64,000 nucleotides of DNA from Ailanthus altissimus (lineage: Eukaryota; Streptophyta; Magnoliopsida; Sapindales; Simaroubaceae), in the NCBI GenBank assembly GCA_946807835.1, contig OX327697.1:10103001-10167000 (forward strand), in the 5' to 3' direction. Both the position numbers and the translations under genes were made by a program. This document shows positions 6,272 to 62,089 of the stretch, piece by piece (position 1 is the stretch's first letter; every line of letters begins with the position of its first letter). The notes beneath the pieces are model-generated. The model was not told the origin of the DNA. It was given only the letters and a program-made list of their open reading frames with translations, and ran no database searches.

Positions 6272-8235
6272 TGACCTAGCGCAAGTGCACGCTTTTTTTA
6301 CCAAGTAATATAGGACTAAGTCCAAATTATCGATCCCACAAAGACTATTGTTTTTATTTTCTCTAATCGAATACTAAAATTATTCTGCTTTATCTTTATT
6401 CAGACTAGCTTTAAGGATGTAGTTTAACTAACTAAATTATTGCTATCAAATTTAACCTAATTAAAATATTGCAAGTACTTAGAGATAGAATTCACTAAAT
6501 TGATAGGTAATCTAGGATATCGACGTATTCCCTAGTAGTTCATTAATCCCTTTAACCCCTTAGTTATTCCCTTTTTATTAATTGATTGGCTAGACATTGA
6601 TTTCATCATAAGCTTCTGTCGACAGTCGAATGATAATATCATACCCTAACAATTACCAATATGTCTATGGTAATCCGAATAAGATGCAACTCATTAAGAT
6701 TAAGTCTAATCAAACCATACATGCCACCTAGGTATATGTCTATACTAGATGGAATTCATAGATATCACCCTATGATCATGTATCAATCTACCCTAGGTTA
6801 AACACATGATTCCTTTTGTCAAAGTTATCATGGTTCCTAAATAATTAAAATAGTGATCAAGTATAATGAAAGCATTAAGCATAGATAGATTAAATCAATT
6901 AAAGAATAAAAGTTCACAACTAAGAGTTTAAAAGAATTAATTATATACTAGGTTCAATAACATCTAACCCTAGATCAAAAGTATTTAGCTCATGTTCAAA
7001 ACAAGATTATCAAAGAAAAAGTGTAAAAATATCATGATCAGAATCATCTCTTAAAACTAAGGAAGAAAATAAAACAAGTGATGCCCTGAGTTGTTCTTCT
7101 TCCTCTTGTCTTGATTGCCCAAGAGTTGATTCTTCAATCTTCAATAAAATTCACCTTGATCTCTTGGTTTGAATATGTATTCATTGCTTGCATTTTTCTT
7201 CTTGCTAAATCTCTCTATTTTTGCCTCAAGATAGTGTTTTTGTTGCTAAGAGAAACCCTAAGTGCGAGGAGCTTCGAATCCACTTGAATAGGCGAGTTGA
7301 GAAGAGTATTTAAACATCCGCACGGGCGCCGCGGTACTGAACACAAGCACCAGGTCTATCAAGATGTTGACGAGTGCTGCGCCGCTGGATGCCCTGAGTT
7401 GTTCTTCTTCCTCTTGTCTTGATTGCCCAAGAGTTGATTCTTCAATCTTCAATAAAATTCACCTTGATCTCTTGGTTTGAATGTGTATTCATTGCTTGCA
7501 TTTTTCTTCTTGCTAAATCTCTCTATTTTTGCCTCAAGATAGTGTTTTTGTTGCTAAGAGAAACCCTAGGTGCGAGGAGCTTCGAATCCACATGAATAGG
7601 CGAGTTGAGAAGAGTATTTAAACATCCGCACGGGCGCCGCGGTACTGAACACAAGCACCAGGTCTATCAAGATGTTGACGAGCGCTGCGCCGCTGGATGC
7701 CCTGAGTTGTTCTTCTTCCTCTTGTCTTGATTGCCCAAGAGTTGATTCTTTAATCTTCAATAAAATTCACCTTGATCTCTTGGTTTGAATGTGTATTCAT
7801 TGCTTGCATTTTTCTTCTTGCTAAATCTCTCTATTTTTGCCTCAAGATAGTGTTTTTGTTGCTAAGAGAAACCCTAGGCGCGAGGAGCTTCGAATCCACT
7901 TGAATAGGCGAGTTGAGAAGAGTATTTAAACATCCGCACGGGTGCCGCAGTACTGAACACAAGCACCAGGTCTATCAAGATGTTGACGAGCGCTGCGCCG
8001 CTGGGTGCTAAGCGTCGCGGTGCTCACTTGCTAATCTGGGCCCCGCGGCACCCAGCCACCTGCTGCTGCGCTACTTTCGTATTTTGAGCGTAACTTCTTC
8101 GTTTGACGTCCGATTTGCCTCCCATTTGTTCCTATGCGTCACATTTTCCATCGTGCATCTGTTTATGATCAGAAAACACAATTAAATAGTCAAATACTTA
8201 TGATTATGAAAAAAAATATGAAAGTTAGGTACAAA
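6272..8235 (-). mobile_element. short-family LTR with internal tandem triplication
   Basis: It starts TGACCTAGCGCAAGTGCACG. The first 800 bp match the short LTR family seen at 34826, 47372 and 62344: 'caagtaatat', 'gatcccaca', the 'actctcttag...caataa' block and the cluster of 'tatgtctatggtaatc'. In related gypsy LTRs the strand complementary to this one carries 'gggttcgacatccgac...acttgc' at the LTR 3' end, so I place the element on the minus strand. Its length is swollen by a 3 x 308-bp duplication. The right boundary (about 8235) is set only by the return of copia coding sequence. No target duplication was seen. Confidence 0.6.
7081..8004. repeat. 308-bp tandem repeat, three copies
   Basis: Three head-to-tail units start at 7081, 7389 and 7697 (each 'atgccctgag'), giving an exact period of 308 bp. 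Units differ by only a handful of substitutions (e.g. gtgcgagg/gcgcgagg, cttgaa/catgaa). Each unit ends with a GC-rich block containing GGGCGCCGCGG and GCTGCGCCGCTGG, unlike the AT-rich surroundings. Two of the units carry a 64-codon minus-strand frame purely because the unit is duplicated. The duplication lies inside an LTR, so it probably arose there by unequal exchange. Confidence 0.95.
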
Positions 8236-17515: not shown

Positions 17516-17520
17516 TCCAT

Positions 17521-19881
17521 TGTCACGCCCCAGACCCAAAAGATCTGACACACGACATCACTTACATTCATTCAATAATACTTAAACATTCATTTTAATT
17601 TCTTTCGAAATTATAGCAATTGAATTATGACTGGGACAATTAGTAAACCGGAGATACGCAGAGTTTTCTCAGAGATTAACACTCTACTACGTCACCAGTA
17701 GCAACTTTGTTACCGGAAGCCCAGAATATATTCATTGTAAATTCTTACTTAAAATCAATCCATTACTATACTTGGTGAAACTTAAATTAAGTCCAACCAC
17801 ACACAATAAAATAATATATAGGTATTTATTCACTAGGGACAAATCAAATATCTTATCCCACGTGTCCCCAAATGAAACACTTAGCAACCTAACAAATTAG
17901 GGAACCCAAGGAACAGCAGAAGCCTTGCCAAATCCGCTAAGCACACATGTACCTTATTTACCTGAAATCACCATAAATTATAATGAGTATAAAACTCAGT
18001 AAGCATACTAGTTTTTCATATATCAAATACAAATACATATATGTACACAATGCATATGTATGATATGCTGTGATCAATCAATATCATAATCTTATCAAAT
18101 CACATATCATGTAAGCGCTTACACATTCTTTCAAAACACATAATAGGAATACCATCACTCAACTACTACTTAGTAGGACTTACATATCACACTTCAAAAG
18201 CTTTCTTTGTTAAACATATCTTATCTTGAAAGCTCACTTTCAAAAAAACACATGTATGTCCATGCTCAATGTCAATGCTCACATTCATAAACATATATTC
18301 ACATTTCATATCAAAATATACTTTGACATAACATAAACATATTCTTAGCCACATTTACAAAATCATTCATAACACTTACTATGTTTATTGTGATTCCAGT
18401 AAAAAGTCTAGTATACTTACCTCTTAGCATTTTCAGGTACAAGGCTTAAATCTCCTTAACCTATCAATGGAGATTAATATTTTCATAAGCCTCACAATTC
18501 ACACAAAATACTTTAAATAGCTTACAAAATTATACACAATGCATTTATCACATCAAATTGGTCTAAATACTTGGTTTCTCAAAACCTGTCATTCTGACCA
18601 CTTACACTTAACAAAATTTTCTAATATATCAAATGATGTCCAATTACTTCAAAATCAGAATATATCATTCTTGACTCATATATCCTTCTTATATATGAAT
18701 ATTATATCAAAATTCCTACACAATCCATTCCATACATACCATCGAATCCAAACTACTAACCTGACAAGATCAAGATACTTACTGAATAGTATTCAATCTC
18801 CCAATTTTATAAAATCATATACTAACTAAAAAATTATAAAACTATCACATAATTACTCTTAACACATATCTCAGTCCATGATAAATATTTCACTTCTAAA
18901 TCACTGCCAAAAATATTTTAAAACTATTTTATTCCATAGCTTTAAAAATCTGTTAATCAAATACTGTAATGAGCGGATATACTTTAGAAAATCATAACAT
19001 TTCAACCACATTGATCTAAATTCTCAATTCCGAGTATATCATATTAGACATATAAACTTATCATATTCCATAAATTCGTAATTTTTGAAGATCATTTAGT
19101 AGGACAAACATTGTTCGTCACTGTATTATACTGTTCACATAGGAAATTTCTAGAATTTTAGGGTCATTTTGGTAAATTCACAACAAATTCAATTTCTGGA
19201 ATTTTGAATCGATTCAAATTCTCAGATGATCCTAAACATATCTAATTTTATATAATCAAAATTCAAAACCAGAATCGAATAACAACAATTTATAAAATTC
19301 TTGGATCAAGAGACTATCAAGCAGAAATTCTACAATCCATCATGATTTATCAAACTATCTTATAGATCATCATCAATTCTCAAAATATCATACGAAATAC
19401 ACGTCAAATCCTCAATTATACATATTTCCAGAAATCAAAACTTAAAGAAATTAACATAATTAACACCAATAAATTGAGAAATAGTTGTGATATACCTCTT
19501 AAAATCCAAATTTCCAATTTCTTCTTCTTTTTCTTCTCCTTCTTCTCTTTCTCTCCCCTCTTTTCTCTCTTCTCTCTCTCTAAAAGAGGTAGCTCGACCA
19601 AAATGAGAGAATTAGGGTTTTAAAAGTGTATTTTTATACTAAGTGGCTAATTTTTAGAATTTACGAATTTACCCCCAAAACTTTCAAAGTATTACAATTT
19701 GGTCCCTAAAATAAATCTAAAGTCTTGCAATGAAACCCAATGCTAATAGTATCACCTTAACCTATACAAACACTACTAATAACAATATATAAATCAAGTA
19801 TCACCAACATACAAATAAAATACGTATATTTATACATATATAAATACTTATTCTTACTAGTCGTGGATACTGGTTACTACA
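17521..19881 (-). repeat. 3' LTR of the LOG-carrying gypsy element
   Basis: On the plus strand it reads TGTCACGCCCC…GGTTACTACA, which is TGTAGTAACC…GGGGCGTGACA in the element's sense. This start and end are common in plant gypsy LTRs. It is 2361 bp. Comparing its first ~400 bp by eye with 25825-28544 gives about eight differences, i.e. close to 98% identity. Relative to the 5' LTR it lacks ~355 bp (the segment 26492-26847 of the other copy). A lysine/glutamate-rich minus-strand frame (19416-19601), repeated in the other LTR, comes from a CT-rich tract and is not called as a gene. Confidence 0.95.
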
Positions 19882-20095
19882 ATTCTCCCCTCCTTATAAG
19901 AATTTCGTCCTCGAAATTCATGACTTGAGCAAACATATAAGGATACTTAAATCTCATTTCTTATTCTCATTCCTAAGTTGCCTTTTCAACAGTATGGTTT
20001 ATTCATAAAACATTTACAAAGCAATCTTTTTGGTATATAAGATTTGCTCATAACTTAGTCTGTGAGAGAAGTACGAAACATTCATCCATAAAATA
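19882..20095 (-). pseudogene. gypsy (chromovirus-like) pol C-terminal tail and polypurine tract
   Basis: On the minus strand, reading from about 20095 towards 19882, there is 'YEQILYTKKIA', then 'NVL*INHTVEKAT*E', 'EMRFKYPYMFAQ' and finally NFEDEILIRRGE. This matches the end of plant chromovirus polyproteins (VLWxNHxVEEATWExExxM…YPxLF…FEDEI). It carries at least four stops and one frameshift. The run AAGGAGGGGAGAA directly before the LTR is the polypurine tract. Homology stops near 20095. The rest of pol is missing, which makes this the only visible protein-coding relic of the carrier element. Confidence 0.8.
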
Positions 20096-20640
20096 AACAC
20101 ATGACACACATTATGGACTTATAAAATTATACACACATATTTTTATTCTTTTCTCCCATTCGTTCAATATTTAATGTACATCTATACACTTCACCTTTTA
20201 TTCATTAAAGAATAATATAGATGTAGAATACCTATACTAATCTCTTAAATAAAATTCTTAACTCCTCTGAAAATTTTAATCCCTTCAACATATACTCATA
20301 CGTCATAATATCATTCACTACCTTGATATCATTAAAAAAAAAATGTAGCATTTCTACGCAACTAAGTTGTCATTCAAATCAGAATATTGAAGGCATTATC
20401 TTAAACGATCAAAAATCAACTTCAATAAAAAGACCTTTAGTTCAACTGATTTTTAAACTATAGATCTTAACATTATATCTCTTACTTTAACTCTTTAAAA
20501 AAATAGTCCACCTTATTGGACATCATTTTCTCATTGAGATTGACATGTCTGCTTTTTTTTTTTTTCTAATATGCTCAGTTTCAAACAGAAAAGATTTTAC
20601 TAGCACAATTACTGCGATGGCAAATATGGTTTTTCAACTA
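20096..20640. other. AT-rich interior of the gypsy element, no gene seen
   Basis: This stretch lies between the pol tail and the promoter of the 386-codon frame. I see no domain in either direction. It may contain the junction between retrotransposon sequence and captured sequence. Confidence 0.4.
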
Positions 20641-20648
20641 TTCCTTTA

Positions 20649-20714
20649 ACGTCATCCACGTAAAAGAAAAGGACAAAACGATTATTAATTTTCTTTCACA
20701 AAACTCTATAAATA
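20649..20714 (+). promoter_or_regulatory. ACGT-containing element and TATA box upstream of the 386-codon ORF
   Basis: ACGTCA (20649-20654) and a second ACGT (20658-20661) lie about 50 bp upstream of TATAAATA (20707-20714), which is 63 bp before the ATG at 20777. The layout of an ACGTCA/TGACGT-type element a short distance before TATA resembles as-1-type plant promoters, including those of plant pararetroviruses. The motifs are visible; promoter activity is inferred. Confidence 0.5.
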
Positions 20715-20776
20715 GCCTAAACCTCATAATCACTTTTCTAGCAATAAAGAAAACCAACCCTCTTACCATCTTCATA

Positions 20777-21937
20777 ATGAATCCCATTATCATAACTCCT
20801 CCTGTTCCTTTTACTCCACCACAATTTCCAGACCTAATCAGAACCAGAACACTCCATTCCCGTGCCAAAGAATTCATCAAACACTACGCCATCTTGGCAG
20901 TCCAAGAACACGGCCTCACAGTTCTTGGTGGCCCTTCATTCAACTTGGAATACCTTTTCTTTCACCTGCACTATTTTTTCCCATTTTCCCAATGGTCCAA
21001 ATCTGTCCTTTACTTGTTATGGTACCTATTGGATCTGTATACAATCGCCATGGAATTTCCATTACTTAGAACCGTCCAAAAATTAGAAAAATGTGATGAA
21101 AATCATCCAGCCCTGTTTTTTCTCCAATGGTTTTACCCAAAGACATGGTGGATAACTAAATTTCAACACATGATTGCAAACAACACAAATGCTGCAGTCC
21201 CTAGACAACATCTTTGGTCTGTTTTACTTCTCCAACGAAAGGGTATGATTGTTTCAGATCATGAAATCCATTATTACCCCACTGTCAAGGATTACCTCAC
21301 CTTTACCCTTTCACTAAAGGGGTCAATTAAGCTCTGGCCTGCAGAAGTAATCCAGTAAAAGAGAGAACTTGAAAGAATTCTTGCTCAAGAAAACCAGATA
21401 ATTCCTCCATCCGTTTGGATCTCCCCAGAAGATGCTGCACCTTGGGAACAGGTTGAAGATGACTTTGCAGAAGAACTGAATTTTGCCAATATACTCAAAT
21501 TCCAACAAAGACAAAAACATCATCTTTCACATCATAGAAATACAAATTACTCTACCCACCATCACCATATCCCAAACATGACTTATTATGCCAGATACAG
21601 ACAAGAAATGGATAACTTTCACCAATGGCCTCAACCACCTATCTCGACAGACTCTACTCAATCTCAGCCAGTTGTCCCGACAGAACCTGACCAACACCAA
21701 CCCAATCTTGACTTATCCCTCTTTCAAGACTCCCAACCTTATCCAACCGACACCCAAATCCAAGAGGAAGCCAGCACATCCCTCATCCAGACCAGCTCAT
21801 CTGAAGAAGATCAAGATATGGTAGACCCATATTCCACTCTGCCAGAGCCTTTATTCAATGTATGGGAACAACAACTCCATAAGTTCCTCTCTCACGGATA
21901 CGACACAGATGAAAGCGACCAAGGAGACTCATTTTGA
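20777..21937 (+). pseudogene. unrecognised 386-codon ORF with one in-frame TAA
   Basis: The plus-strand frame runs from ATG 20777 to TGA 21937 with only one interruption, TAA at 21356-21358 (codon 194, context CAG TAA AAG). The two halves, 193 and 192 codons, are in the same frame, and the sequence between them has no other stop. The N-terminal half is rich in aromatic residues (LEYLFFHLHYFFPFSQWSKS, WFYPKTWWI) and ends in 'GSIKLWPAEVIQ'. The C-terminal half has a His cluster (STHHHHIPN) and an acidic Gln/Ser/Pro-rich tail. I do not recognise the family. A TATA box precedes it and an AATAAA (22110-22115) follows. Codon use and lack of further stops suggest it was maintained until recently. 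It could be a captured host gene, an ORF of a mobile element or virus-like element, or a gene using stop readthrough. It sits 0.6 kb upstream of LOG copy 1, on the same strand. Confidence 0.7.
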
Positions 21938-22460
21938 CCTACATTGCTGTTTCTATTTTCACAGAAACTAGATCCGTGTTGCTCTATCACATCAAAGAGT
22001 GACTGATTACTGCTTTATCTTTATGTCAAGTGTGCTTTATCTTTCTTCATATATGCTTTTAATCTATTGGCCAAAAATCAATGTTAAGATCACAAAAATC
22101 TTTGTAATTAATAAAGTTAATTTGGCCTCATGTCCAAAGTCCAATTGTTAGCTCAAAAAGTCTTCAAGTAATAGATGCACTGTCGGCCATTAATGCCAAA
22201 ACAGCAAAGTCCCTAAATCCATAAAATAGGCCTTTATTGACTTTTCTTAATTATCTTACCTAATTCATCACGCTTTCGACACAATTTTTATCACACTTAC
22301 ATATCAACATATATTTATTCAAGATTTTGCGGCCTATTATCCCTTATAAAATGATAAAGTAAAACTCATTCTTTTTTTTTTTTGCCTCACAAGAATCGAG
22401 AAAAATATATACTTGAACATACTTACACATATGCTCCATAGCTATTATCAATTTGTTTCT
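21938..22460. other. spacer between the unknown ORF and LOG copy 1
   Basis: This is non-coding. It holds the putative polyadenylation signal AATAAA at 22110-22115 and a poly-T run near 22371-22383. The last ~50 bp before the TATA box resemble 58660-58710, the sequence upstream of LOG copy 2. Confidence 0.5.
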
Positions 22461-22461
22461 C

Positions 22462-22468
22462 TATAAAT
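22462..22468 (+). promoter_or_regulatory. TATA box of LOG copy 1
   Basis: TATAAAT lies 62 bp upstream of the ATG at 22530. The surrounding '…aatacatt…gcatc.t.atacaaactc' is conserved upstream of LOG copy 2 (58700-58745). The two copies therefore share promoter sequence, not only coding sequence. Confidence 0.55.
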
Positions 22469-22529
22469 ACATTATTATTGCATCCTTATACAAACTCGAA
22501 AATATTCAAAGATTAGGGTGAGCGTAACA

Positions 22530-25379
22530 ATGGAGGAAACCTCAGTTCGTCGATTCACAAAAATTTGTGTCTTTTGTGGATCTAACCCTGGGAATACTGA
22601 AGAGTTTACAAAAGTTGCAGAAAATCTTGGTAAAGTATTAGCTGAGCGAAATATACATTTAGTATATGGAGGAGGTAACCGAGGGTTAATGGGGTCTGTG
22701 GCAAAAGCTGCATACAATAAAGGTAGTCGAGTTTTGGGTATCATTCCAAAACCTCTAGCTATTGAAAATATTGTAGGAAAAACAGTTGGGGATGAGTTAC
22801 AAGTCTCATCTATGCATGAACTGTTGGAGCTGGTGCTCACGTGCCATTCCAATATTGTATGAATATTAATTGTTAATATTTATACAATAAACATTTCGAA
22901 TAAAGATTGTTAATATCATATTAATATGGTATAATGCTTGTAACATTACAGACATTGTTTGATCTGAAAGAGTTCAAATCTGGTCTAAAGGAGTTTAGAT
23001 CAGAACTAATAGTTAGCAAAGCTGAGAGTTATAAATGCTAAAAGTTAGCACTGTTAAGAGTTAGCAGGTTATAAGAGTCAGCGAGGTCTAAAGAGTTAGA
23101 ACCTTGTCTATAATGGGACAAAGACCTGAGAGTATACTTGTAATGATATAGTTGCAAAGAGTTGCAATAGGTGTTAAGAAATATCATTATGTAAGTATGT
23201 CTCAAAGATAATGTTCCTGATCTATAATCACTAATGCGGGTCTATCGGTGATTCACTATATATAGATTAGTGTATGTCTATATCTGACTGGTTCAGATGG
23301 TTGTTCTTAGCTGACCATGAGCTTAGAGCTTGTATAGGCATGCGGGTATCCAGTCAGGACTGGATACTGAACAGACTTATGAGGACCCCAATAGATATCC
23401 TATGACACCGTCAAAGGAAGGTCCTCTCGAGTTGAGTAGTATTCGTGGTCCTTTGACCTGAGCGCCACGGTGGTCTTGTGAGTGATCCATCATGCTTTGG
23501 TTCCACATATGTCAGAGACCTTTCATGGTCTGACCGCTATGTGTCGCTGGGTATGGTCCGATGCTCATGGAGTCCGGTGTGCGTAGATACGGGATCCGTC
23601 AGCTTACGTAGGTAAGTTGTATATCCGATGCTCCGAGATTGTATTTCATAAAGTCTTGTGGCCACAAGCATAAACCCGGGAAAAGAGTTTCCCATAGGGT
23701 TAAACAATATAGCAAAAGTGTTTGCGTATATTGTTTATCGAGATACGAATCTGGAGATAAGATTATGGATGAGCAAATAGGGATTTGACGGTGCTGATCT
23801 ATATCCCTGCACATCCAGGATATAAATGATGGAAGGATTATACGTATACGTTATGACCTCAACTTGTATGGTCTGACACGCTGATTTGTAATATTCGTAA
23901 CGTGTGCGTGGGGCATCGATTACGGATTAATGGAACAGTTCCATTTGACAAATCGGGTGTAGACCTAGAGAGTCCCAATATGAAATGTACTCTTTGAGCA
24001 CTTGGGCAGTGTACCGTATTGAATTGTTCAATACAGTATAATTCAGCAATTACTAAGGTTACGTTAACTAAAGTATGTGGTTAAATTGGTGGGACCCACT
24101 TTAGGTTAACTTGGTAACCGAGTAAGGATATAATAGTAATTTCACTTTATGATTATTTAATTGTTAAATAATTAAAATAAATATTTATTTATTTAATTGT
24201 TAAATAAATTAATTTAACATAACTAAGGTTAAAAGTTAACCAAGTGGTTAAGTTAAGTTAACCTTACTTAAAGGTTAAGTAAAGGTTAACCTAACCATGG
24301 TTAAGTTAGTTAACTATGGTTAAATTAATTAAATATTTATTAACTTAAAGGTTAAGTTAAAATAATCTAACTAAGGTTAAATGTTAACTAAGGTTAGGTT
24401 AAGCCAAATGAAATGCAAATGAAATTCAAATTAGTTTGGAATTAATTCATTTGTATATAAAGTGAAATGAAATTGAAATTCATGAAGGATTTTAGTTTTT
24501 TAGGTTTTGCATTTTGGGAGCCAATTCAATTTGAGAAATTGAAATTGTTTGTTTTGTGTTTTAAGTGTTAGAACAACAAAACAAATTGAATTAATGGTTA
24601 CTAAATGTAATAACTAAAAACAAGATTTGTTTTATTTATTCAAGAGTTGAATAAAAGGAAAAACAAATTTAATTAAGTTAAATGGTTTAACTTTGAAAAA
24701 TGTTTAAGAGTTAAACACATATGCTGGATTAAGATGCTGCCATTCTAGACAATCAAACCCACCCTTGTTGATTGCTAGAATTGATCAAAGATTCATTTCA
24801 TGGTGGACTTCAAAGAAAATTAATCCAAAGGCTTCATTGGTGATATTTCTCAATCTCGAATTTCAGATTAATCAAATGTTATTTTCTGTGTTCATTATAT
24901 GTAATCTTCCGCTGTGCACATGTATGTATGAGATATGTATATTGTTTGTATGATGAACACAAACCCACATGCAAGAACCCTAAGTTAATTCGCCCACCAA
25001 TATAACCCAACATGAACGAATGGCTTAAATGCTTAGGCATGCAGATGCTTTCATAGCTCTACCAGGAGGTTTCGGGACCTTGGAGGAAATTTTTCAAATT
25101 GTCTCATGGGCACAATTACAAATCCACCAAAAACCCATTGGTTTGTTAAATGTTAATGGTTTTTACGATGGGTTGATATCTTTTCTTGACTATGCAGCGG
25201 GAACACAATTCATCCCACTTCTAGCACGACGGATTCTTATTTCAGCTCCAACTGTTGATCAACTGATTGATCAATTGCAGTCTTTTATTCCTCTGTCTAA
25301 TCCAACATTGCATCAGTTAGATTGGTCTACTCATGACAGTCAGAAGAAGCGCAAAATAGACTTAAATCTCACTCCGTAG
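22530..25379 (+). pseudogene. LOG: intronless LOG-family gene (cytokinin-activating phosphoribohydrolase), copy 1, disrupted
   Basis: LOG enzymes release free cytokinin bases from cytokinin riboside 5'-monophosphates in the cytosol. Part 1 (22530-22821, 97 codons) begins MEETSVRRFTKICVFCGS and contains the nucleotide-binding YGGGNRGLMG. Part 2 (25018-25379) contains PGGFGTLEE, the conserved PGGxGTxxE catalytic motif, and 'KPIGLLNVNGFYD', 'RRILISAPTVDQL'. Together they give about 216 codons, the usual LOG length, with no introns, whereas typical plant LOG genes have several. Part 1 and part 2 are separated by a 2191-bp solo LTR. Even with that insert set aside, codon 101 is TAA (25026-25028, in MHERMA*ML where relatives have Glu), so the copy carries two independent lesions. 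AATAAA follows at 25434. It lies antisense inside a gypsy element. Confidence 0.93.
22822..25012 (+). mobile_element. solo long LTR (2.19 kb) inside LOG copy 1
   Basis: It starts TGTTGGAGCT and ends ACCCAACA, so its termini are inverted (TGTTGG/CCAACA). It is flanked by TGAAC at 22817-22821 and 25013-25017. Removal of the LTR and one TGAAC restores the LOG frame at the HER of 'MHER'. It is homologous to 254-2546 over the whole length. It contains a block dense in GGTTAA/TTAACC (about 24215-24400). No protein domain is present. A single LTR with a clean duplication means a solo LTR, and the insertion is later than the LOG capture. Confidence 0.95.
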
Positions 25380-25433
25380 CCTCTATTGTATTTTTGTTAC
25401 TGCTATTGTTGTTGTGTTGTTGTTTTCCTTTTC

Positions 25434-25439
25434 AATAAA
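25434..25439 (+). terminator. putative polyadenylation signal of LOG copy 1
   Basis: AATAAA lies 55 bp after the LOG stop codon. The sequence around it ('ttttcaataaaag.tgtttcaa.tgat') is conserved after LOG copy 2 (60791-60815), supporting a shared 3' untranslated region. Confidence 0.6.
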
Positions 25440-25804
25440 AGTTGTTTCAATTGATGTCTTCAATGCTCTACTTCTCTATATTTTGTCATTGAGAAAATTA
25501 TCTCAATTTGCTCTATGACATGCAAATTATCATTATAAGATATTCAACATCATTCTTGCTAAGCATATTAGTCATAACTTAAAAAAAAATCTAAATGGTA
25601 ACATTAAGATCTACAAGGTACCATTATCCACAACAACAACAATCTTAGCAGCTCTTGGATACTGTGTCATCTTCACAAAATCATACAAAATTTAAGGAAT
25701 ATGTCAAACTTTTACACAACAAAGCTACAAATACAATCCTAAGGATTTGGCATCTGCTCGGTTCCCTTGACTCGACACTTAAAAGTCTACAGAATCATAT
25801 CTTA
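25440..25804. other. LOG 3' flank and gypsy 5' leader
   Basis: Homology with the 3' flank of LOG copy 2 continues to about 25510 ('cattgagaaaattatctcaattt' versus 'cattaaggataatgtcttaattt'). From there to the primer site the sequence should be the leader of the minus-strand gypsy element. A short minus-strand frame near 25600-25660 (MTQYPRAAKIVVVVDNGT) could be a remnant of a gag start, but I cannot confirm it. Confidence 0.35.
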
Positions 25805-25816
25805 GCTCTGATACCA
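25805..25816 (-). other. tRNA-iMet-type primer-binding site
   Basis: The minus strand reads TGGTATCAGAGC, identical to the primer site of most plant LTR retrotransposons, complementary to the initiator methionine tRNA 3' end. It lies 8 bp inside the LTR that begins at 25825. This fixes the element's direction as right to left and identifies 25825-28544 as the 5' LTR. Confidence 0.9.
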
Positions 25817-25824
25817 ATAAAAGC

Positions 25825-28544
25825 TGTCACGCCCCAGACCCAAAAGATCTGACACACGACATCACTTACATTCATTCAATAATACTTAAACATTCATTTT
25901 AATTTCTTTCAGAATTATAGCAATTGAATTATGACTGGGACAATTAGTAAACCGGAGATACGCAGAGTTTTCTCAGAGATTAACACTCTACTACGTCACC
26001 AGTAGCAACTTTGTTACCGGAAGCCCAAAATATATTCATTGTAAATTCTTACTTAAAATCAATCCATTACTATACTTGGTGAAACTTAAACTAAGTCCAA
26101 CCACACACAATAAAATAATACATAGGTATTTATTCACTAGGGACAAATCAAATATCTTATCCCACGTGTCCCCAAATGAAACACTTAGAAACCTAACAAC
26201 TTAGGGAACCCAAGGAGCAGCAGAAGCCTTGCCAAATCCGCTAAGCACACATGTACCTTATTTACCTGAAATCACCATAAATTATAATGAGTATAAAACT
26301 CAGTAAGCATACTAGTTTTTCATATATCAAATACAAATACATATATGTACACAATGCATATGTATGATATGCTGTGATCAATCAAAATCATAATCTTATC
26401 AAATCACATATCATGTAAGCGCTTACACATTCTTTCAAAACACATAATAGGAATACCATCACTCAACTACTACTTAGTAGGACTTACATATCACATATCA
26501 CATAATGAGCCAAATGTCATTCGTAGGTGACATACCGTATGAGAGGAATAGTACAAGTGAGGCCTTTAAATCACACATATATAATGCTCATGCCCGAAGG
26601 TAAAAGCCAAACCCTCACCCTGATCATCGGTGAGTCCTCTCACATGTACCAATACGCCACAACACGAATGTGACGACTCACTCTTCCTTTAAGTACAAAT
26701 AGGATCCTCCCTACATACGGAACACATAACATATACCAATCCTGAAGGAAAGGCCACACATAAAGGCTCCACAAATCACATAAAATGCCTACTAAGTTAA
26801 CAGTGAGTTCAAGTACCCTCAAAAAACAAAATATTTCTCATGGACATATTACACTTCAAAAGCTTTCTTTGTTAAACATATCTTATCTTGAAAGCTCACT
26901 TTCAAAAAAACACATGTATGTCCATGCTCAATGTCAATGCTCACATTCATAAACATATATTCACATTTCATATCAAAATATACTTTGACATAACATAAAC
27001 ATATTCTTAGCCACATTTACAAAATCATTCATAACACTTACTATGTTTATTGTGATTCCAGTAAAAAGTCTAGTATACTTACCTCTTAGCATTTTCAGGT
27101 ACAAGGCTTAAATCTCCTTAACCTATCAATGGAGATTAATATTTTCATAAGCCTCACAATTCACACAAAATACTTTAAATAGCTTACAAAATTATACACA
27201 ATGCATTTATCACATCAAATTGGTCTAAATACTTAGTTTCTCAAAACCTGTCATTCTGACCACTTACACTTAACAAAATTTTCTAATATATCAAATGATG
27301 TCCAATTACTTCAAAATCAGAATATATCATTCTTGACTCATATATCCTTCTTATATATGAATATTATATCAAAATGCCTACACAATCCATTCCATACATA
27401 CCATCGAATCCAAACTACTAACCTGACAAGATCAAGATACTTACTGAATAGTATTCAATCTCCCGATTTTATAAAATCATATACTAACTAAAAAATTATA
27501 AAACTATCACATAATTACTCTTAACACATATCTCAGTCCATGATAAATATTTCACTTCTAAATCACTGCCAAAAATATTTTAAAACTATTTTATTCCATA
27601 GCTTTAAAAAACTGTTAATCAAATACTGTAATGAGCGGATATACTTTAGAAAATCATAACATTTCAACCACATTGATCTAAATTCTCAATTCCGAGTATA
27701 TCATATTAGACATATAAACTTATCATATTCCACAAATGCGTAATTTTTGAAGATCATTCAGTAGGACAAACATTGTTCGTCACTGTATTATACTGTTCAC
27801 ATAGGAAATTTCTAGAATTTCAGGGTCATTTTGGTAAATTCACAACAAATTCAATTTCTGGAATTGTGAATCGATTCAAAGTCTCAGATGATCCTAAACA
27901 TATCTAATTTTATATAATCAAAATTCAAAACCAGAATCGAATCACAACAATTTATAAAATTCTTGGATCAAGAGACTATCAAGCAGAAATTCTACAATCC
28001 ATCATGATTTATCAAACTATCTTATAGATCATCATCAATTCTCAAAATATCATACGAAATACACATCAAATCCTCAATTATACATATTTCCAGAAATCAA
28101 AACTTAAAGAAATTAACATAATTAACACCAATAAATTGAGAAATAGTTGTGATATACCTCTTAAAATCCAAAATTCCAATTTCTTCTTCTTTTTCTTCTC
28201 CTTCTTCTCTTTCTCTCCCCTCTTTTCTCTCTTCTCTCTCTCTAAAAGAGGTAGCTCGACCAAAATGAGAGAATTAGGGTTTTAAAAGTGTATTTTTAAT
28301 ACTAAGTGGCTAATTTTTGGAATTTACAAATTTACCCCCAAAACTTTCAAAGTATTATAATTTGGTCCCTAAAATAAATCTAAAGTCTTGCAATTAAATT
28401 CAATGCCAATAGTATCACCTTAACCTATACAAACACTACTAATAACAATATATAAATCAAGTATCACCAACATACAAATAAAATACGTATATTTATACAT
28501 ATATAAATACTTATTCTTACTAGTCGTGGATACTGGTTACTACA
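25825..28544 (-). repeat. 5' LTR of the LOG-carrying gypsy element
   Basis: It is 2720 bp, with the same ends as 17521-19881 (TGTCACGCCCC…TACTACA on the plus strand). It contains ~355 bp (26492-26847) missing from the other LTR. That segment lies between short repeats 'catatcaca' and 'catattaca', which points to a repeat-mediated deletion in the 3' LTR. The copy is followed on its outer side by TCCAT (28545-28549). Confidence 0.95.
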
Positions 28545-28549
28545 TCCAT

Positions 28550-32760: not shown

Positions 32761-34210
32761 TGATAAGGGCAAATTTGTCATATATTTTCTCATGTTTTTA
32801 TTATTGATATTTTATGATTTTATGAAAATAGATGGCTATTTATGTGCATTATTGTTATTTATAGGGACTTGAACGAAATTTAAAGAAAGAACGCAAAAGG
32901 AGCGAAAACAGAGACTAAAATGCAAAGTTCTCAAATTATGAGTCCAGCGCCCCTGCGCCACAAGTATTTTCGCCCCAACGCTGAAATAGTGATCGAAATA
33001 AGAAAAACGACCTGCTTAAGTCGCGTCTAGCGCCCCAGCGCCGAAGAGTCAGCGCGCCAGTGGTGAAGCCGTTTTCATACAGCGCCCCAGCGCCAATATC
33101 CCACCGCTCCAGCGGTAATAGCTTTTTCACGCGTCGCCCCAGCGACAGATGCATAGCGCGCCAACGGTAGTCCGAGTCCTAGTCCGACGAGAATTGAGAT
33201 CTTCAAGCTCATATCAATCCCTATAAAAAGCCACTCGTTCCCAGCCTTCAAGGATGAATCCAAGACGACCCAAGAGCACCAAGAATACAGAGCACAAGTC
33301 TTGGAGAGCAATAGGAGCTTAATTGAAGCAACTTTAGAGAGAGATACAAGACGTTCTTCGGCATCAAGAGTTCCTAGGCAGCGCAATTAAGAGCAATTCG
33401 ACGTCTATATCGGTTTGCTAATAATTGTATCATGATTTATAATTATTTGTACTGCTGTTCTCTTGTAGCCATGAGCTAAACTTGTTTTCTAGGGTTAATA
33501 CTTGAACTCAATATGTGTGCTTAATTGCCATATCTTTCGAATATTTAATAAACTTAGTCATTTATTATTTAAATTACTTGTGTTTAATGCTTCAATATAT
33601 CTGGCCAATATATGGTGAATGAGTTGGTAATATTATTGATAAACTCGGAAGAGGAATCATAATATTTAGACCTAGGTAATTTGATGCATGATTGTAGAGT
33701 AACATTCAATGTTGAATATGCAAGTTTCAATTTAGGATAGGAATATACTTAATTGGCATGTATGATCAATAAGACCTAATCTTAATGAATCTTAATTTAT
33801 TACAAGTACCATAGGAATATAGGTATTTGGTAAATTAAGGTATACTTGCATGACCTTGGAAGAGGCTTGTGAATACATTAGTGTCTTGATCAATAATAAA
33901 GACTAAGGGAGTTAAATATTATAAGGTTAATCATTAGAAAGAATATTGAGGGATAGTATTAATCCTAGGTTTTCTCTACATTGCTATCTTCTTATTCTCT
34001 TTGCATTGTGTTTTTACTTTTATATTTTCTACATTCATTCTTAGGTTTTTATTTATCTGAATAATTATTAGGAAGATATAATTTTAGTAATTGGTTAAAA
34101 AGAAAACATTATCTCTGTGGGTTCGACATCCGACTTATTTAGTCTATTTATTACTTGCATACGATAGTGTATACTTGCACTTAATTTTATGATATGAAAA
34201 TATCGCATCA
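32761..34210 (+). mobile_element. solo short-family LTR (1450 bp), sense orientation
   Basis: It starts TGATAAGGGC and ends ATCGCATCA, with GTGAC on both sides (32756-32760, 34211-34215). Near its 3' end it carries 'gggttcgacatccgac' and 'acttgcatacgatagtgtatac', landmarks of Athila/Tat-type gypsy LTRs. It contains a GC-rich block (32938-33190) with repeated AGCGCC motifs. It interrupts the leader of copia E and is a solo LTR by recombination. Confidence 0.92.
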
Positions 34211-34825
34211 GTGACTACTCATTGCCATTGCCAATAAGTTTCTAAATCATTGATCTATTAAATTATATCCATACTTTCTCATTGCTTTTTCCTCGATACA
34301 TATATGGTTCTCTTTTAATCTCTACAAAACTCTCAATTAAGCTTTTTTATTAACTTAAAAAAAATATTTGAGGTCAAAGTAAGATTTTTTGAGGAGTTAA
34401 TTGAAAGAATCTCAGTAATCTAATGTCTACCTAAATTTTTTTTTATAAATCTAGGGCCAACCTAAAATTTTAAATATATTAGAGGCCAATTTATAATTCT
34501 TCATAAATTTGGGGGCTAATTTAATTTTTATTTTTGTAAATTTGAGTCAAATCTATAAATTTTTAAAATAAATTTGGAGAATATTTTTAATTTTTTTTTA
34601 TATAATTTTGGGCAAATCTATAATTTCACACCAAATTGATCTTACCATATGTTTCTAAGTTCTTGTTATCATTGAAAACTTTGATGTCTTAACCTATAGA
34701 TAATGATACTAATGCACATAAGTTTACTGCCTACAAAGATCATCAACGGTTAATTTATTTTCTTATGGTTTTATAGGATCATTTTGAGCCCATTCGTGCT
34801 TCTTTGCTCTGTCAAAAGCTATTAC
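34211..34825 (+). pseudogene. copia E gag fragment
   Basis: Near 34720-34820 the plus strand reads FTAYKDHQRLIYFLMVL*DHFEPIRASLL, which matches the 'DEQRLIQFLMAL.DDFEPIRASLL' segment of plant copia gag (UBN2-type). It carries a stop and lacks a clean start; the preceding 500 bp are degraded. The frame is interrupted by an LTR at 34826 and continues for a few residues after 36177 ('LPILD*ASDRLISEKL'). Confidence 0.7.
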
Positions 34826-52982: not shown

Positions 52983-52984
52983 AT

Positions 52985-57770: not shown

Positions 57771-58740
57771 ACGAGACCAATTGATATTTATTGTACATAT
57801 TTATATATATTTGTTCTTTTTCTAACTTTATTTGTCCTTTTAGTCTTGTTTCATACCTAGTTAATTGACGGATAATATCACTCTGTGACATTTCAAGTCG
57901 ATTTTATTAGTTTCCCATAATAACTGATACAAAAAAAAAATCCATCTTCTTTTATTCCTTTTTCTATAAAAATGGATAACATTCTGATAAATCTGAAAAG
58001 AAGTTTTCCCTTATTGCCTCAAAATGCCTTGAAGAACATTTACCCAGCAAATTGTGAAATATTATTGTTATTAATGTTATGAACATACTTATTGATATAT
58101 GTTGGTTAATTGAAGTTAAGGTCCGAATGATAGGTGAGTTTTTAGATGCATTAATTTTCTACATGATGAGATCGGGTAAAAGCTCTTTTACAAAAAAGTG
58201 AAGAGCAAAAAGTTTAAGTGTTTGTTACAAGTGTGCATGCATGACTTGTAACACACGTTGTCAAACTTTAGAAATTGTGTCTACAAATCATAAAGTTAAA
58301 ATTCAATTTATTAGGGATGGCCAGAGGAAAGTAGTCTTTACATGATATCTTTTCAACATTTAAGATGGAATATAGTGGATATATGCATATTGCCATTCGT
58401 GATTTATTAGAAATTTTCAAAAGGAATATGAGCGGTACAGTCTAAAAAATCTGACTAAAAAGAGATTATATTTGCCAATTTATAAGAAAATTAGATAGAA
58501 AGCCTATCCTTGACACATAAAGGGCATTTAAGTTGTTACTGGACATAAAACTATAGGAAGATGTGAGCGACAATTACAACCACCTGTACATATACACATT
58601 ACCCGTTCTTTTTTAAAATTTTACATTTATAATAAAATATTTTTTTCTGACATCAACCAACTCCTCATATAGACTTTATAGCTACAACATTGTTCTAGGT
58701 TCTGTAAATACATTGCTTTACTTCTGCATCTTCATACAAA
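57771..58740. other. unassigned segment between pol and LOG copy 2
   Basis: About 1 kb that belongs neither to recognisable pol nor to LOG. Frames on the plus strand contain coding-like stretches ('GEFLDALIFYMMRSGKSSF', 'EYSGYMHIAIRDLLEIFKRN') broken by stops, possibly an env-like or captured ORF of the element. I do not recognise it. The last ~80 bp resemble the promoter region of LOG copy 1. Confidence 0.35.
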
Positions 58741-58754
58741 CTCAAAATCATAAA

Positions 58755-60743
58755 ATATTTTCTTCTGTGGATCCTACTCTGAGAATACCAAAGAGTTTAT
58801 AGAAGTATCAGAAACTCTTGGTAAGGTGTTAGCTGAGCAAAAAATGCATTTAGTTTATAGTGGAGATAACCATGGGTTATTGAGGAGTATGACAAAAGCT
58901 GCATAAAATAAAAGCAATTGAATTTTGGGTATCATCCTGAAACCTCTAGTCGTTAGAAATATTGTAGGACCAACAATTGGCTATGAGTTATAAGTCTCAT
59001 CTATGCATATGCGAATGAAAAATATGCTTGGTCGTGTAGATTCCTTCATAGCTCTACTAGAAGGTCTCGGAACTTTAGAAGAAAATTTTCAAATTGCCTT
59101 CTAGGTATAGTTGTAAATCCACCAAAGACCCATTAATTTGTTAATTTTTAATGATTTTTAAAATAATTTGTTATCATTTCTTGACTATGCTTTAAAAAGA
59201 ATTTATTTCACTTTTGACAGGACAAATTTCCATTTCTACTTCCATTGTTTATCAGTTGATTATTCAATTACAAGCTTTTATACTTCTATCTAATCCAACA
59301 TTTAGTCAACTAGATTGGTTCACGATGCGATATTCTTATATCTTAAAATTAAGCGCAAGCATACGCCATTGTAACAAGTAATAAAGAGACTTATAAAGTC
59401 GGATGTCGAACTCACAAGGATAATTTTTATTTTCTACCAACTACTAAAATTATATCTTTCTGGTAATTATTCAGAAAAATCAAATCTTAATTTTTGCAAT
59501 AAATTTAAGAAAAATAAAGTGAAGAAAATAAATGACATAACTCAAATAAAATAAGAAGATAGCAATATAGAAAAAGCCTAGGATTAATTACTATCCTTCA
59601 ATATGTTTTCTAAAGATTAATCATTTTAATATTTATATCCCTCAATTCTTATTATTGGTCAAGACACTAATGTATTCACAAGCATGTCCCAAGGTCATGC
59701 AAGTATATCCTAATTTACCAAATACTTATATTCCTATGGTACTTGTAATAAATTAAGATTCATTAAGAATAAGTTTTATTGACTATACATACCAATTAGG
59801 TATATTCCCATCCTAATTCAAAACTTGCATATGTAACATTGAATGTTACTTTACAATTATGTATCAAATTATCTAGTTTTGAATACAATGATGCCTCTTC
59901 CGAGTTTATCAAAGTATTACCAAATCAATCATAATATTGATAAGATATAATAAAGCATTAAGAACAAATAATGTGAATAAGAAAGAATTGAGTTCAAATA
60001 AATATTAAAAAGATCCAATAATTAAGCTCACATATTGAGTTCAAGTAAGAACCCTAGAAAATAAATTTAGCTCATGATAACAAGAGAGTTATGGCTGAAA
60101 AATAAAATAAACATAATACAACCAAAAGCAAACTAATATAGACGTCAAATTGTAATTGGTTGATACATCAAAGATTCACCAATAATCTCTTGCTTCCTTA
60201 AATTCCCTTTTCTTCTTTCTCTAAAAATTGCTCTTCTTCAATGTGTTTTGGCTCTAAGAGCCCTAAATTGTGTGTTCTTTGAGGTCTGAAATAAGAGGCC
60301 TTTATATAGGGATTGATTAGAGTAATTGAGTTGTATTTCCTTTTTATTGTAGCGTAATTACTATTCACTAATATTGGTCACGTGTGACTGTTCACCGTTG
60401 GAGAGAAAAGCTTTGGGCCCTGGAGTTTTGCTGGAGCGAAATATTGTTTATCGTTGGGCTGAAGTTATTGTAGCAAATCACTTTTTATAGCACTGTAGCG
60501 AATCATTATAGCATATACTATAACAATTTGATGTTTTGCATTGTTTTCCTTAGATCATCCCTAATTGCTCTACTACTCCAAACTTACAAAATAACAATAA
60601 AACATATAAAAAAACTAATAATCTTATTAAAATGTGCAATTAATCAAGTTAAGAAAGTGAAAATAATAGATATAACTTACGTATATCAGTTCATTGGTGA
60701 CAGTGAGAAGAAATGCAAGATAAATTTGACTCTCCGTTTTTAG
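58755..60743 (+). pseudogene. LOG-family pseudogene, copy 2
   Basis: Part 1 (58755-59322) reads 'FCGSYSENTKEFIEVSETLG', 'KVLAEQKMHLVYSGDNHGLL' and 'LGIILKPLVVRNIVGPTIGY', parallel to LOG copy 1. Part 2 (60689-60743) is FIGDSEKKCKINLTLRF then TAG. They are separated by a solo LTR. The start codon and first ~14 codons are deleted relative to copy 1. The catalytic PGGxGT motif is LEGLGTLEE. In-frame stops follow 'TKAA' and 'GYEL', and the region after 'LDYA' is frameshifted. Like copy 1 it has no introns. AATAAA follows at 60796. It lies in sense orientation within the Athila-like element. Confidence 0.88.
59323..60688 (-). mobile_element. solo short-family LTR (1366 bp) inside LOG copy 2
   Basis: It starts CGATGCGATATT (T to C at the usual TGATGCG), ends GTATATCA, and is flanked by GTTCA at 59318-59322 and 60689-60693. 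Removing it and one GTTCA restores the LOG C-terminal frame (LDWFIGDSEKK). The interior matches 42553 and 45594 over hundreds of bases, including ACTGTTCA-like motifs near 60360-60420. Confidence 0.93.
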
Positions 60744-60744
60744 C

Positions 60745-62089
60745 CTCTCTACTTTTATGTCTTTATAACATTTTGTTAGTATGGCTTACTTTTTCAATAA
60801 AAGCTGTTTCAAGTGATATCTTTTATACTCTACTCTTTCTATATTTTAGCATTAAGGATAATGTCTTAATTTAGTTAAGGGAGGGTAGTTGATATAGAAT
60901 GTTAGTGTTAAGTTTTGCTATCAGTTGTTCTTTAAAGAAAAAATATTTTGATATCATGAATGGCATAAGTAAAGGGTTCATTTTGGACTCTTGAGACTCT
61001 TTTTAGATCTAAAATGACAAAGTAAGGAGTACATTTGTGAACTTTTGAAAATTATTTTAATTGACTTGTTATAATTATAATTATTTTATTTTTTTATGCA
61101 TTTCAATACGTTTGTTTATTGCGTGTATTCTTGGTAACTCTTGTATAAATGAGTTTGCTTTGCTATTGAGGTATGATTTCAAAATTATTTGGTTTAAGTC
61201 ATTTTTTCTATATAGGTTACTAAAGAATGACTTTTGAAATTATTTTTTGAGCACAATACTAAGCCTTATAATAAGACGGATGTTTTAATGTATATAGCCA
61301 AGAAAATTCTCATGTTTAAGTATACATTTGTTTTTTCTAATCTCACATATATTTTATGAGTTAGTGGATAGGTTTGAGAAAATAACTTATGAACTTTCAT
61401 TAATCTTTTAAATTGGTTAATTTTTATTTAAAATGACTTTATTTAGATTGAGGAATGATTTGGTTGTCTAGCCAAAAGATGATTCAAAATAAAATTTCAA
61501 ATTTTGTGAAACATATTTTTGTGAGAAATTGTTCTTATTTTGTAAAGCTTCCTTATGTTCTTTATAATAGAGAAAAAAAGAAAAAAATAAAAGGAAAAAA
61601 AAAAGTAATTCAGTTCAATAAAGCGTTCCTTCAAATTTAGATGACAAAAATCTTTCAGAAGCATTTTTTCTCAACAAACCTCTATTTGTGATATTCACAT
61701 AGGGTAATTGAAGTCTTAAAAGCTAGTGTGTGACGAGAATGGTTTGACTCTAAATAATTAACTTTTCTATCTTTAAAATCATGTTAGATTATCTATCTAT
61801 CCTGAAACGTGACATTTTCTTGAGCGCTTATATATTTTTCAACTCTATGATTGAAATTCTAGCCCTTAAAAAAATTATTCACCATGAGAAGAATTTCTAG
61901 GTTTTATATGTTGTAGTTTATAGTAAGAAGGTTTTGACTTGATTCACAAAAGCACAATTTTAAAAGTTATGATTGAAATAACCTTAATAGCAATAGTAAT
62001 CTTGAACTGGCATTTTGTTTGAAATACATAGGTATTGTTTAAATTTTATTTATTCTTGAATTGTTAGAGATTAGCAATAAGCTTGTTAG
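60745..62089 (+). other. LOG copy 2 3' flank and Athila 3' untranslated region
   Basis: The first ~120 bp match the 3' flank of LOG copy 1. From about 60860 come 'ttaaggataatgtcttaatt' and 'agttaagggagggtag', resembling the 'GACAATGTC…GTTTGGGGGAGG' of Athila/Tat 3' regions. An A/G-rich stretch at 61570-61630, also common before 3' LTRs in this group, follows. No functional gene is seen; short frames (60-61 codons) look random. Confidence 0.5.

What the first reader, a model, noticed from the sequence alone, without database searches (positions are those of the whole stretch)
17521..28544. An LTR retrotransposon that carries a host cytokinin gene instead of gag-pol
Seen: two near-identical LTRs, a perfect TGGTATCAGAGC primer site next to one, a polypurine tract and pol tail next to the other, and a TCCAT target duplication on both outer sides in the middle of a copia gag. 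Between the LTRs lie, in opposite orientation, an intronless LOG gene and a 386-codon ORF, while gag, protease, RT and integrase core are absent. Known: plant retrotransposons occasionally transduce cellular genes, and LOG proteins activate cytokinins. Inferred: the unit moved as a single 11-kb element with its cargo, presumably using proteins of an autonomous relative. An alternative is that the cargo was inserted into the element after integration.
Basis: partly seen in the sequence, partly recalled or inferred. Interest (0 to 1): 0.92.

Follow-up and report, generated by a model that had tools for sequence, protein, structure and literature searches.

The report
Jumping gene family carrying cytokinin gene
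A plant retrotransposon that has lost its own replication genes, and whose cargo occurs in hundreds of copies, carries a gene for a plant-hormone-activating enzyme whose protein looks to have been kept by selection while the element spread, although the copy in this window is itself broken.

Summary
The element is real: two LTRs (K2P 0.012), tRNA-Met primer site, polypurine tract and TCCAT duplication in a copia gag. The window copy is dead: LOG is split by a 2,191-bp solo LTR, and both cargo ORFs carry a stop. Genome search decided the main question. 20 of 20 other distinct copies fetched carry LOG at the same place; of 17 measurable ones, 15 have exact, all-different target duplications, LTR divergence 0-1.6%. 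788 places match a LOG stretch. The cargo was mobilised. LOG is open in 31 of 40 sampled copies; inherited changes show purifying selection (30 syn:22 nonsyn:0 stop), private ones do not (18:51:7). A gag- and integrase-bearing chromovirus with 89-93% identical LTRs is the likely helper. LOG was probably not taken directly from a host gene: a second Ty3/gypsy-like family (552 places) carries it in sense before its polypurine tract; LOG domains in Citrus and Populus Gypsy elements are published (PMC9289625). The other ORF follows a caulimovirid RNase H relic. New variant of a known kind; its use to the element is inferred.

The parts
25825..28544 (-). 5' LTR of the element (element reads on the minus strand)
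   Evidence: direct repeat; 92-93% identical to the LTR of the coding chromovirus in three fetched 5' ends
17521..19881 (-). 3' LTR, lacking 358 bp present in the other LTR
17516..17520 (.). target duplication TCCAT, left copy
   Evidence: sequence
28545..28549 (.). target duplication TCCAT, right copy; the empty site restores the copia gag reading
25805..25816 (-). primer binding site TGGTATCAGAGC (tRNA-Met, recalled)
   Evidence: only occurrence in the window; also next to the LTR in L037-L039
25496..25804 (-). leader and start of gag region kept from the chromovirus
   Evidence: 74-75% identical to L037-L039 over window 25496-25878
19882..20119 (-). polypurine tract and decayed end of pol
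   Evidence: aligned to the open pol end of L030
20570..20776 (+). relic of a caulimovirid RNase H C-terminus, antisense to the element
   Evidence: best PDB match CaMV RT 8R0S residues 541-574, E 9e-4, the only other match up to E 10 being a haemolysin at 0.42; the copy in L026 gives 8R0S alone, E 6e-4
20777..21937 (+). ORF2 (386 codons in open copies; one stop inside in this copy), antisense
   Evidence: inherited changes under purifying selection; size and place as published for florendovirus ORF2
22530..22821 (+). LOG gene, first part, antisense
   Evidence: PF18306 E 2.3e-10; Arabidopsis LOG-type chains E 6e-24 and 8e-23
22822..25012 (.). solo LTR of another element inserted in LOG, duplication TGAAC; absent from LOG in the 20 other copies
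25013..25379 (+). LOG gene, second part, with one premature stop near its start
   Evidence: PF03641 E 6.7e-27
58698..60872 (+). fossil LOG of the second (Ty3/gypsy-like) family, interrupted by an insertion at 59320-60693 (duplication TTGGT)
   Evidence: roughly 70-89% identical, by block, to L060-L063
56946..57104 (+). integrase core fragment upstream of the fossil LOG, same strand
   Evidence: PF00665 E 6e-4, below the curated cut-off
60850..60888 (+). conserved 3' motif and purine tract closing the fossil element
   Evidence: the same motif and a G-rich tract follow LOG in L060-L063

Best explanation
This is a broken copy of a young, high-copy, non-autonomous Ty3/gypsy (chromovirus-derived) LTR retrotransposon family of a plant. 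The family keeps LTRs, primer site, leader, the decayed end of pol and the polypurine tract. In place of gag-pol it carries two genes on the opposite strand: an intronless LOG (cytokinin riboside 5'-monophosphate phosphoribohydrolase type) and an ORF that follows a caulimovirid RNase H relic (ORF2, florendovirus-like by place and size). Shown: the cargo moves with the LTRs, and the codon pattern of both genes is that of purifying selection in the replicating lineage. Strongly suggested: a chromovirus family with its own gag and pol and nearly the same LTRs supplies the proteins for transposition. Suggested: the LOG came from a second Ty3/gypsy-like family, where it is a sense gene before the polypurine tract. 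Inferred: the LOG protein helps the element spread, most simply by raising active cytokinin in the cell where copies are expressed, so that cells with new insertions divide more or stay meristematic.
For: 20 of 20 other distinct copies fetched carry LOG at the same place, antisense, without the solo LTR (seven of these also). 17 have both LTRs measurable: 15 exact and all-different 5-bp duplications, K2P 0-0.0164, median 0.0007. 788 genomic places match a 65-bp LOG stretch with up to 3 mismatches, reversed control 0. LOG is open at 217 codons in 14 of 20 LTR-picked copies and 17 of 20 LOG-picked copies. In 36 in-register copies inherited changes are 30 syn:22 nonsyn:0 stop, private ones 18:51:7, neutral expectation 0.288:0.672:0.040; P 1.3e-5 (one-sided) for inherited, 0.38 for private; each half sample gives the same picture. 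For ORF2 44:46:3 against 28:73:16. Frame-shifted readings of LOG lose the signal. LOG is closer than the LTR in 105 of 120 copy pairs. Helper: gag, protease and zinc knuckle in one 5' end; RNase H, integrase zinc-binding and SH3 over cut-off, integrase core and chromodomain below it; 1,509-codon open frame at 39 of 150 listed places (counted by eye); LTR 89-92% identical in 8 of 8 3' ends and 92-93% in 3 of 3 5' ends; five of the 39 are among these eleven loci. Source of LOG: L062/L063 show pol end, ORF, LOG, motif, purine tract, LTR-like start in one orientation; the LOG of L062 is 73% identical in protein to that of L042; 552 places.
Against: Very young copies with a broken LOG exist: L026 (K2P 0.0004), and L014 and L015 (0.0004 and 0, in an apparent array), so a copy can be mobilised or multiplied without its own LOG. 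No transcript, protein or enzyme activity was seen. The sampled copies were the best matches to this copy's LTR or exact matches to a LOG stretch, so the most decayed are under-represented; the 20 LOG-picked copies were not checked for LTRs. Two of the 14 open copies of the first sample lack the PGGxGTxxE motif and one other lacks SMHER. ORF2 has 3 inherited stops and is not less diverged than the LTR (57 of 120 pairs). Trans-mobilisation is inferred from shared LTR, primer site and tract. No link between LOG product and transposition is shown.
Confidence: 0.84

Rival explanations
1. Direct transduction of a host LOG mRNA by the chromovirus, as in maize Bs1.
For: LOG is intronless while most peanut LOG genes have 7 exons (passages of PMC13257298); captured genes are common in plant LTR elements (abstract of PMC3726574).
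Against: The cargo is antisense, while transduced genes are usually sense (PMC7264820). The segment shared with the second family runs from window 22459 to 25510 and stops where chromovirus leader homology begins at 25496. The young LOG is 73% identical in protein to the LOG of the second family but only 41-51% to two Arabidopsis LOG-type chains in four aligned parts (43/96, 49/96, 40/98, 49/98), which are 64/96 and 68/98 identical to each other. A host-type exon was found (L064, 69% to Arabidopsis) but not compared with the young LOG in a tree.
Confidence: 0.12
2. The cargo entered an ordinary LTR element after it integrated.
For: The window copy alone would allow it.
Against: 20 of 20 other distinct copies carry it, with different target duplications; pol-tail stops are shared between copies.
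Confidence: 0.01
3. Selection on LOG acts at the level of the host (domesticated extra cytokinin genes), not of the element.
For: The LOG protein is conserved; captured genes are reported as partly expressed and under selection in sorghum (abstract of PMC3726574).
Against: Constraint appears in changes shared by several copies and is absent from private changes, which is the pattern of selection during replication and not of retention at single loci.
Confidence: 0.08
4. The LOG protein serves the element by cleaving a nucleotide signal of host defence and not by making cytokinin.
For: LOG cleaves N-glycosidic bonds of nucleotides (recalled); PF18306 (SLOG cluster 4) matches; in both families LOG sits beside a virus-like protein gene (ORF2 here; PF05515 Viral_NABP in L062).
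Against: No substrate evidence; the motifs are those of ordinary LOG.
Confidence: 0.15

Closest known systems
Ty3/Gypsy elements with YgdH (LOG) domain in Citrus sinensis, C. clementina and Populus trichocarpa (PMC9289625: abstract, passages and section 12 seen; it cites Steinbauerova et al. 2011, not held)
   Same: LOG domain inside plant Gypsy-type elements; probably the same kind as the second family here (L060-L063)
   Different: There only a domain detected in consensus sequences; no non-autonomous carrier, antisense pair of genes, selection test or helper in what I saw
[quoted passage not shown] PMC7264820 first of three parts)
   Same: cellular-type gene between LTRs
   Different: transduced genes are described there as being in one or few copies and usually sense; here hundreds of LOG copies, antisense, under selection
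Antisense additional ORFs of Grande, RIRE2, Retand (PMC7264820 first part; PMC11963269 passages)
   Same: antisense genes kept across a family of LTR elements
   Different: those lie beside gag-pol and their proteins have no known role; here gag-pol is gone and one protein is a LOG
Florendovirus ORF2 (PMC4241990, passages and section 7)
   Same: ORF directly behind RNase H, 45-58 kDa, no known domains
   Different: here inside an LTR element and separated from the rest of a virus; no sequence comparison with florendoviruses was possible
Chimera of a badnavirus and a Ty3/Gypsy element in Musa (Gayral et al., as told in passages of PMC10377300)
   Same: caulimovirid sequence associated with a Ty3/Gypsy element
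   Different: here a short viral piece amplified in many copies together with LOG

Membership tests
LTR retrotransposon | paired LTRs, PBS, PPT, 5-bp target duplication | tested here: met
   15 exact duplications in 17 measurable copies
Autonomous Ty3/gypsy chromovirus | own gag, protease, RT, integrase, chromodomain | tested here: not met
   none found in the interior stretches tested; gag, protease, RNase H, integrase and a weak chromodomain in the relative (its RT polymerase part was not scanned)
Non-autonomous derivative of that chromovirus | LTR, PBS, leader and PPT shared with a coding relative in the same genome | tested here: met
Mobilised gene-carrying element | several LTR-flanked copies with the same cargo and different target duplications | tested here: met
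LOG phosphoribohydrolase | LOG/lysine decarboxylase-like domain with PGGxGTxxE | tested here: met
   no NCBIfam cut-off is reached by either part of the broken copy taken alone
LOG phosphoribohydrolase | releases cytokinin base from its riboside monophosphate | not testable with these tools
   needs an enzyme assay
Florendovirus ORF2 | sequence homology to florendovirus ORF2 | not testable with these tools
   protein database switched off; no relative in IMG/VR
Caulimovirid RNase H relic | match to a caulimovirid RT-RNase H end in preference to Ty3 | tested here: met
   CaMV RT 8R0S best, no Ty3 chain listed up to E 10 or E 1; short, E about 1e-3
Host gene transduction | cargo closer to a host gene than to any mobile gene | tested here: inconclusive
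   closest relatives found are in the second family; host LOG exons not compared in a tree

The most novel reading that the evidence does not exclude
Retrotransposons have made a cytokinin-activating enzyme part of their own toolkit. In one genome two different Ty3/gypsy lineages, one apparently with its own pol and one without gag-pol, carry LOG in hundreds of copies, each time next to a virus-like protein gene, and in the second lineage the LOG protein is kept by selection while it is mobilised in trans. The pair acts like a small effector cassette: one protein acts on silencing or RNA, LOG on hormone state or on defence nucleotides, so that cells in which the element is active divide or fail to react.
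Probability: 0.4. Interest if true: 0.93.

Novelty: new variant of a known kind. Interest (0 to 1): 0.83.

Why it matters
Why non-autonomous LTR elements keep coding genes that replication does not need is open. Here constraint can be separated from decay in one family: inherited changes are constrained, private ones are not. That makes the question testable with ordinary enzymology and expression data. It would also mean that a plant hormone gene spreads as selfish DNA, and that retrotransposons exchange accessory genes with each other and with pararetroviruses.

Tried and rejected
Rejected: LOG with a large intron (the 2.19-kb piece is a solo LTR with a duplication, absent from the other copies). 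Rejected: cargo added after integration. Rejected: LOG as a gene of a pararetrovirus (my own early idea), since the second family carries LOG without that ORF2. My recalled reading that FEDEILIRRGEL is the end of the pol protein is wrong for this family: the open pol ends before it. Led nowhere: IMG/VR searches with ORF2 and LOG pieces; AlphaFold models of an ORF2 part (pLDDT 41.5) and of LOG of L042 (pLDDT 47.3), too poor for fold searches, which I did not run; Pfam on ORF2; Pfam on the integrase-like pieces of L061 and L063, no match; Rfam and tRNA scans (only a plant snoRNA). Not done: a tree with the host LOG genes; a search for the caulimovirid donor; a scan of the helper's RT polymerase part. 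On checking I found that loci L002-L008 are the same seven copies as L009-L015, so the count of other copies is 20, not 27.
Full report
OBSERVATION. The window is repeat-rich plant DNA (a plant snoRNA; genome of 939 Mb, window = contig 15, 10103001-10167000). The element is as described in outline. LTRs lie at 17521-19881 and 25825-28544; they differ by 18 transitions and 11 transversions over 2,361 bases (K2P 0.0124) and one lacks 358 bp. The only TGGTATCAGAGC in the window is at 25805-25816 on the minus strand. TCCAT flanks both outer ends, and the joined copia flanks read through as gag. Ten of 29 minus-strand open stretches of the interior were scanned and gave no Pfam match.

LOG is cut by a solo LTR, 22822-25012, with TGAAC on both sides, and has one premature stop; the same codon is a stop in 0 of 36 other copies. 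The 386-codon ORF has an inner stop at 21356-21358. A second LOG, 71-80% identical by block and full of stops, lies at 58.7-60.9 kb. At 48 of the 123 positions where both Arabidopsis chains agree, the two window copies differ; the element's copy keeps the shared residue at 29, the fossil at 2, neither at 17 (one-sided binomial for 2 of 31, 2.3e-7). So the element's LOG lineage stayed constrained after the split.

MOBILISATION. After eight unanswered attempts the genome search worked. With a 500-bp primer-site/LTR query, 40 of 3,081 first-look candidates were scored, all at 98-100%. The seven other loci cut out with it all carry LOG without the solo LTR. I then took ten-kb stretches at 20 of the 39 other places, these seven included: all 20 carry LOG. 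L017, L018 and L025 could not be measured end to end; L025 lacks one side. Of 17 measured, 15 have exact target duplications, 15 different ones; the two without (L014, L015) lie about 13 kb apart on contig 25, where element copies adjoin. K2P ranges from 0 to 0.0164, median 0.0007; the window copy, at 0.0124, is among the older. The cargo therefore moved with the LTRs, and recently.

COPY NUMBER. A 65-bp LOG stretch matches 387 + 401 places with up to 3 mismatches; the reversed pattern matches none. The tool gives these counts as whole. LTRs around them were checked only in the 20 copies.

SELECTION. LOG is open (217 codons) in 14 of 20 LTR-picked copies, one more lacks its stop, five are broken. 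In a second sample of 20, taken at intervals from the list of exact matches (contigs 1-5 only; no copy shared with the first sample), 17 of 20 are open. Four copies (L014, L015, L040, L041) were dropped before the count because they were out of register. In the remaining 36, changes found in one copy only are 18 synonymous, 51 nonsynonymous, 7 stop; changes in two or more copies are 30, 22, 0; neutral expectation 0.288, 0.672, 0.040. Inherited changes differ from neutral (one-sided P 1.3e-5), private ones do not (P 0.38); Fisher P 1.7e-4. Both halves show it separately: 19:11:0 against 18:41:5, and 19:8:0 against 15:28:2. Reading 18 of the copies one or two bases out of frame removes the excess of synonymous inherited changes (7:19:3 and 2:24:4). 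For ORF2 (19 copies, L025 left out) inherited changes are 44:46:3 and private 28:73:16, neutral 0.271, 0.680, 0.049. ORF2 is open at 386 codons in 6 of 20 and at 375 in 2 of 20; in three the start string was not found and nine are broken. LOG is less diverged than the LTR in 105 of 120 pairs of 16 copies, ORF2 in 57 of 120, so for ORF2 the case rests on the codon pattern alone. As the copies share their layout, the inherited changes most simply arose after one capture, while the family spread. Against strict dependence on the own LOG: L026, and also L014 and L015, have near-identical LTRs and a broken LOG.

HELPER. A search with PF24626 (SH3_Tf2-1) listed 150 of 5,613 candidates; by my count 39 have a 1,509-codon open frame without a stop in the match. 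All 8 loci cut out lie next to an LTR 89-92% identical to that of the window. Three 5' ends taken at other listed places show LTRs 92-93% identical, a primer site with the same sequence, and a leader 74-75% identical to window 25496-25878. Five of the 39 (L031, L035 and the places of L037-L039) are among these eleven; the other 34 were not checked for their LTRs. Pfam finds gag, RVP_2 and a zinc knuckle at the 5' end L038, and in L031 and L030 RNase H, integrase zinc-binding and SH3 over cut-off, with the integrase core and, in L030, a chromodomain below their cut-offs. The pol end of the LOG family is decayed, with stops shared by the copies in which it could be read, so it has long been non-autonomous.

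WHERE THE CARGO COMES FROM. The stretch before ORF2 matches the C-terminal end of CaMV RT (PDB 8R0S; identity of the entry seen in a passage of PMC11363490) at E 9e-4 and, in another copy, 6e-4; no Ty3-type chain was listed up to E 10. Florendoviruses have an ORF2 of 45-58 kDa behind RNase H with no known domain (PMC4241990, passages and section 7); ORF2 here fits by place and size only. For LOG, a query with the fossil copy found an older layer at 77-79% (40 of 2,947 candidates scored). L060 and L061 hold LOG followed by the CATTGAGGACAAT...TCAATTTA motif and a G-rich tract. A query with an Arabidopsis LOG stretch listed 150 of 4,803 candidates, the best one a host-type exon at 69%, the others at 52-54%. 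Two of the others, L062 and L063, 98% identical to each other, read in one orientation: a pol end that I read as integrase, an ORF matching PF05515 Viral_NABP (E 6.9e-6), an open LOG (PF03641, E 5e-40), motif, purine tract, LTR-like start. Pfam did not confirm the integrase reading in L061 or L063; it found a core fragment, below cut-off, upstream of the fossil LOG in the window, and L063 aligns at 84% to window 57289-57755 just behind it. A 66-bp LOG stretch of this family matches 267 + 285 places. Its LOG (L062) is 73% identical in protein to that of the young family (L042), and the shared DNA spans window 22459-25510, ending where chromovirus homology starts. So LOG most likely passed from this family into the chromovirus derivative, ending up antisense. 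How (nested insertion with deletion, or recombination) is not resolved; simple RNA template switching would give sense orientation.

COMPARISON WITH THE LITERATURE. PMC9289625 (abstract, passages and section 12 seen) reports the YgdH domain of LOG proteins in Gypsy consensuses of two Citrus species and, unfiltered, Populus, citing Steinbauerova et al. 2011 (not held). LOG in plant Gypsy elements is therefore known as a domain. Not seen in the listings of my searches or in the parts of papers I opened: a non-autonomous family with LOG in place of gag-pol, antisense, with a pararetroviral ORF and evidence of selection. The library lacks most subscription journals.

MECHANISM. Shown: joint mobilisation, recent activity, codon-level constraint. 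Strongly suggested: supply of replication proteins by the chromovirus. Inferred: benefit through LOG. LOG enzymes release active cytokinin in one step (recalled), which could raise division of cells in which the element is active. The neighbouring virus-like genes in both families suggest a second function against silencing or RNA control; PF05515 proteins are carlavirus nucleic-acid-binding proteins (recalled). A role on defence nucleotides is possible but untested.

Noticed in passing
L062:367-1050 and L063 (window fossil region 57780-58645): ORF upstream of LOG in the second family matches PF05515 Viral_NABP (E 6.9e-6, above cut-off, L062): a carlavirus-type nucleic-acid-binding protein inside a retrotransposon.
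   Followed up: partly
window 265-1425, 4393-6019, 22822-25012, 50806-52990: Four LTR-like copies or parts of one repeat family, 70-78% identical by block; one of them is the solo LTR in LOG.
   Followed up: partly
window 33394-34214, 42555-42919, 45596-46917, 59320-60693: Another repeat family with four copies or parts in the window; one interrupts the fossil LOG with a 5-bp duplication.
   Followed up: no
window 7080-8008: Three tandem copies of a 308-bp unit, 98% matches.
   Followed up: no
window 44894-45000: Plant snoRNA snoR71 (Rfam RF00097, 46 bits).
   Followed up: no
L027: Complete LOG-element copy with shortened LTRs in which both LTRs share the same internal rearrangement, so a variant LTR form is itself mobile.
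   Followed up: no
L014, L015 (contig 25, about 16.145-16.168 Mb): Adjoining LOG-element copies that lack matching target duplications and look like a tandem array of LTR-interior units.
   Followed up: no
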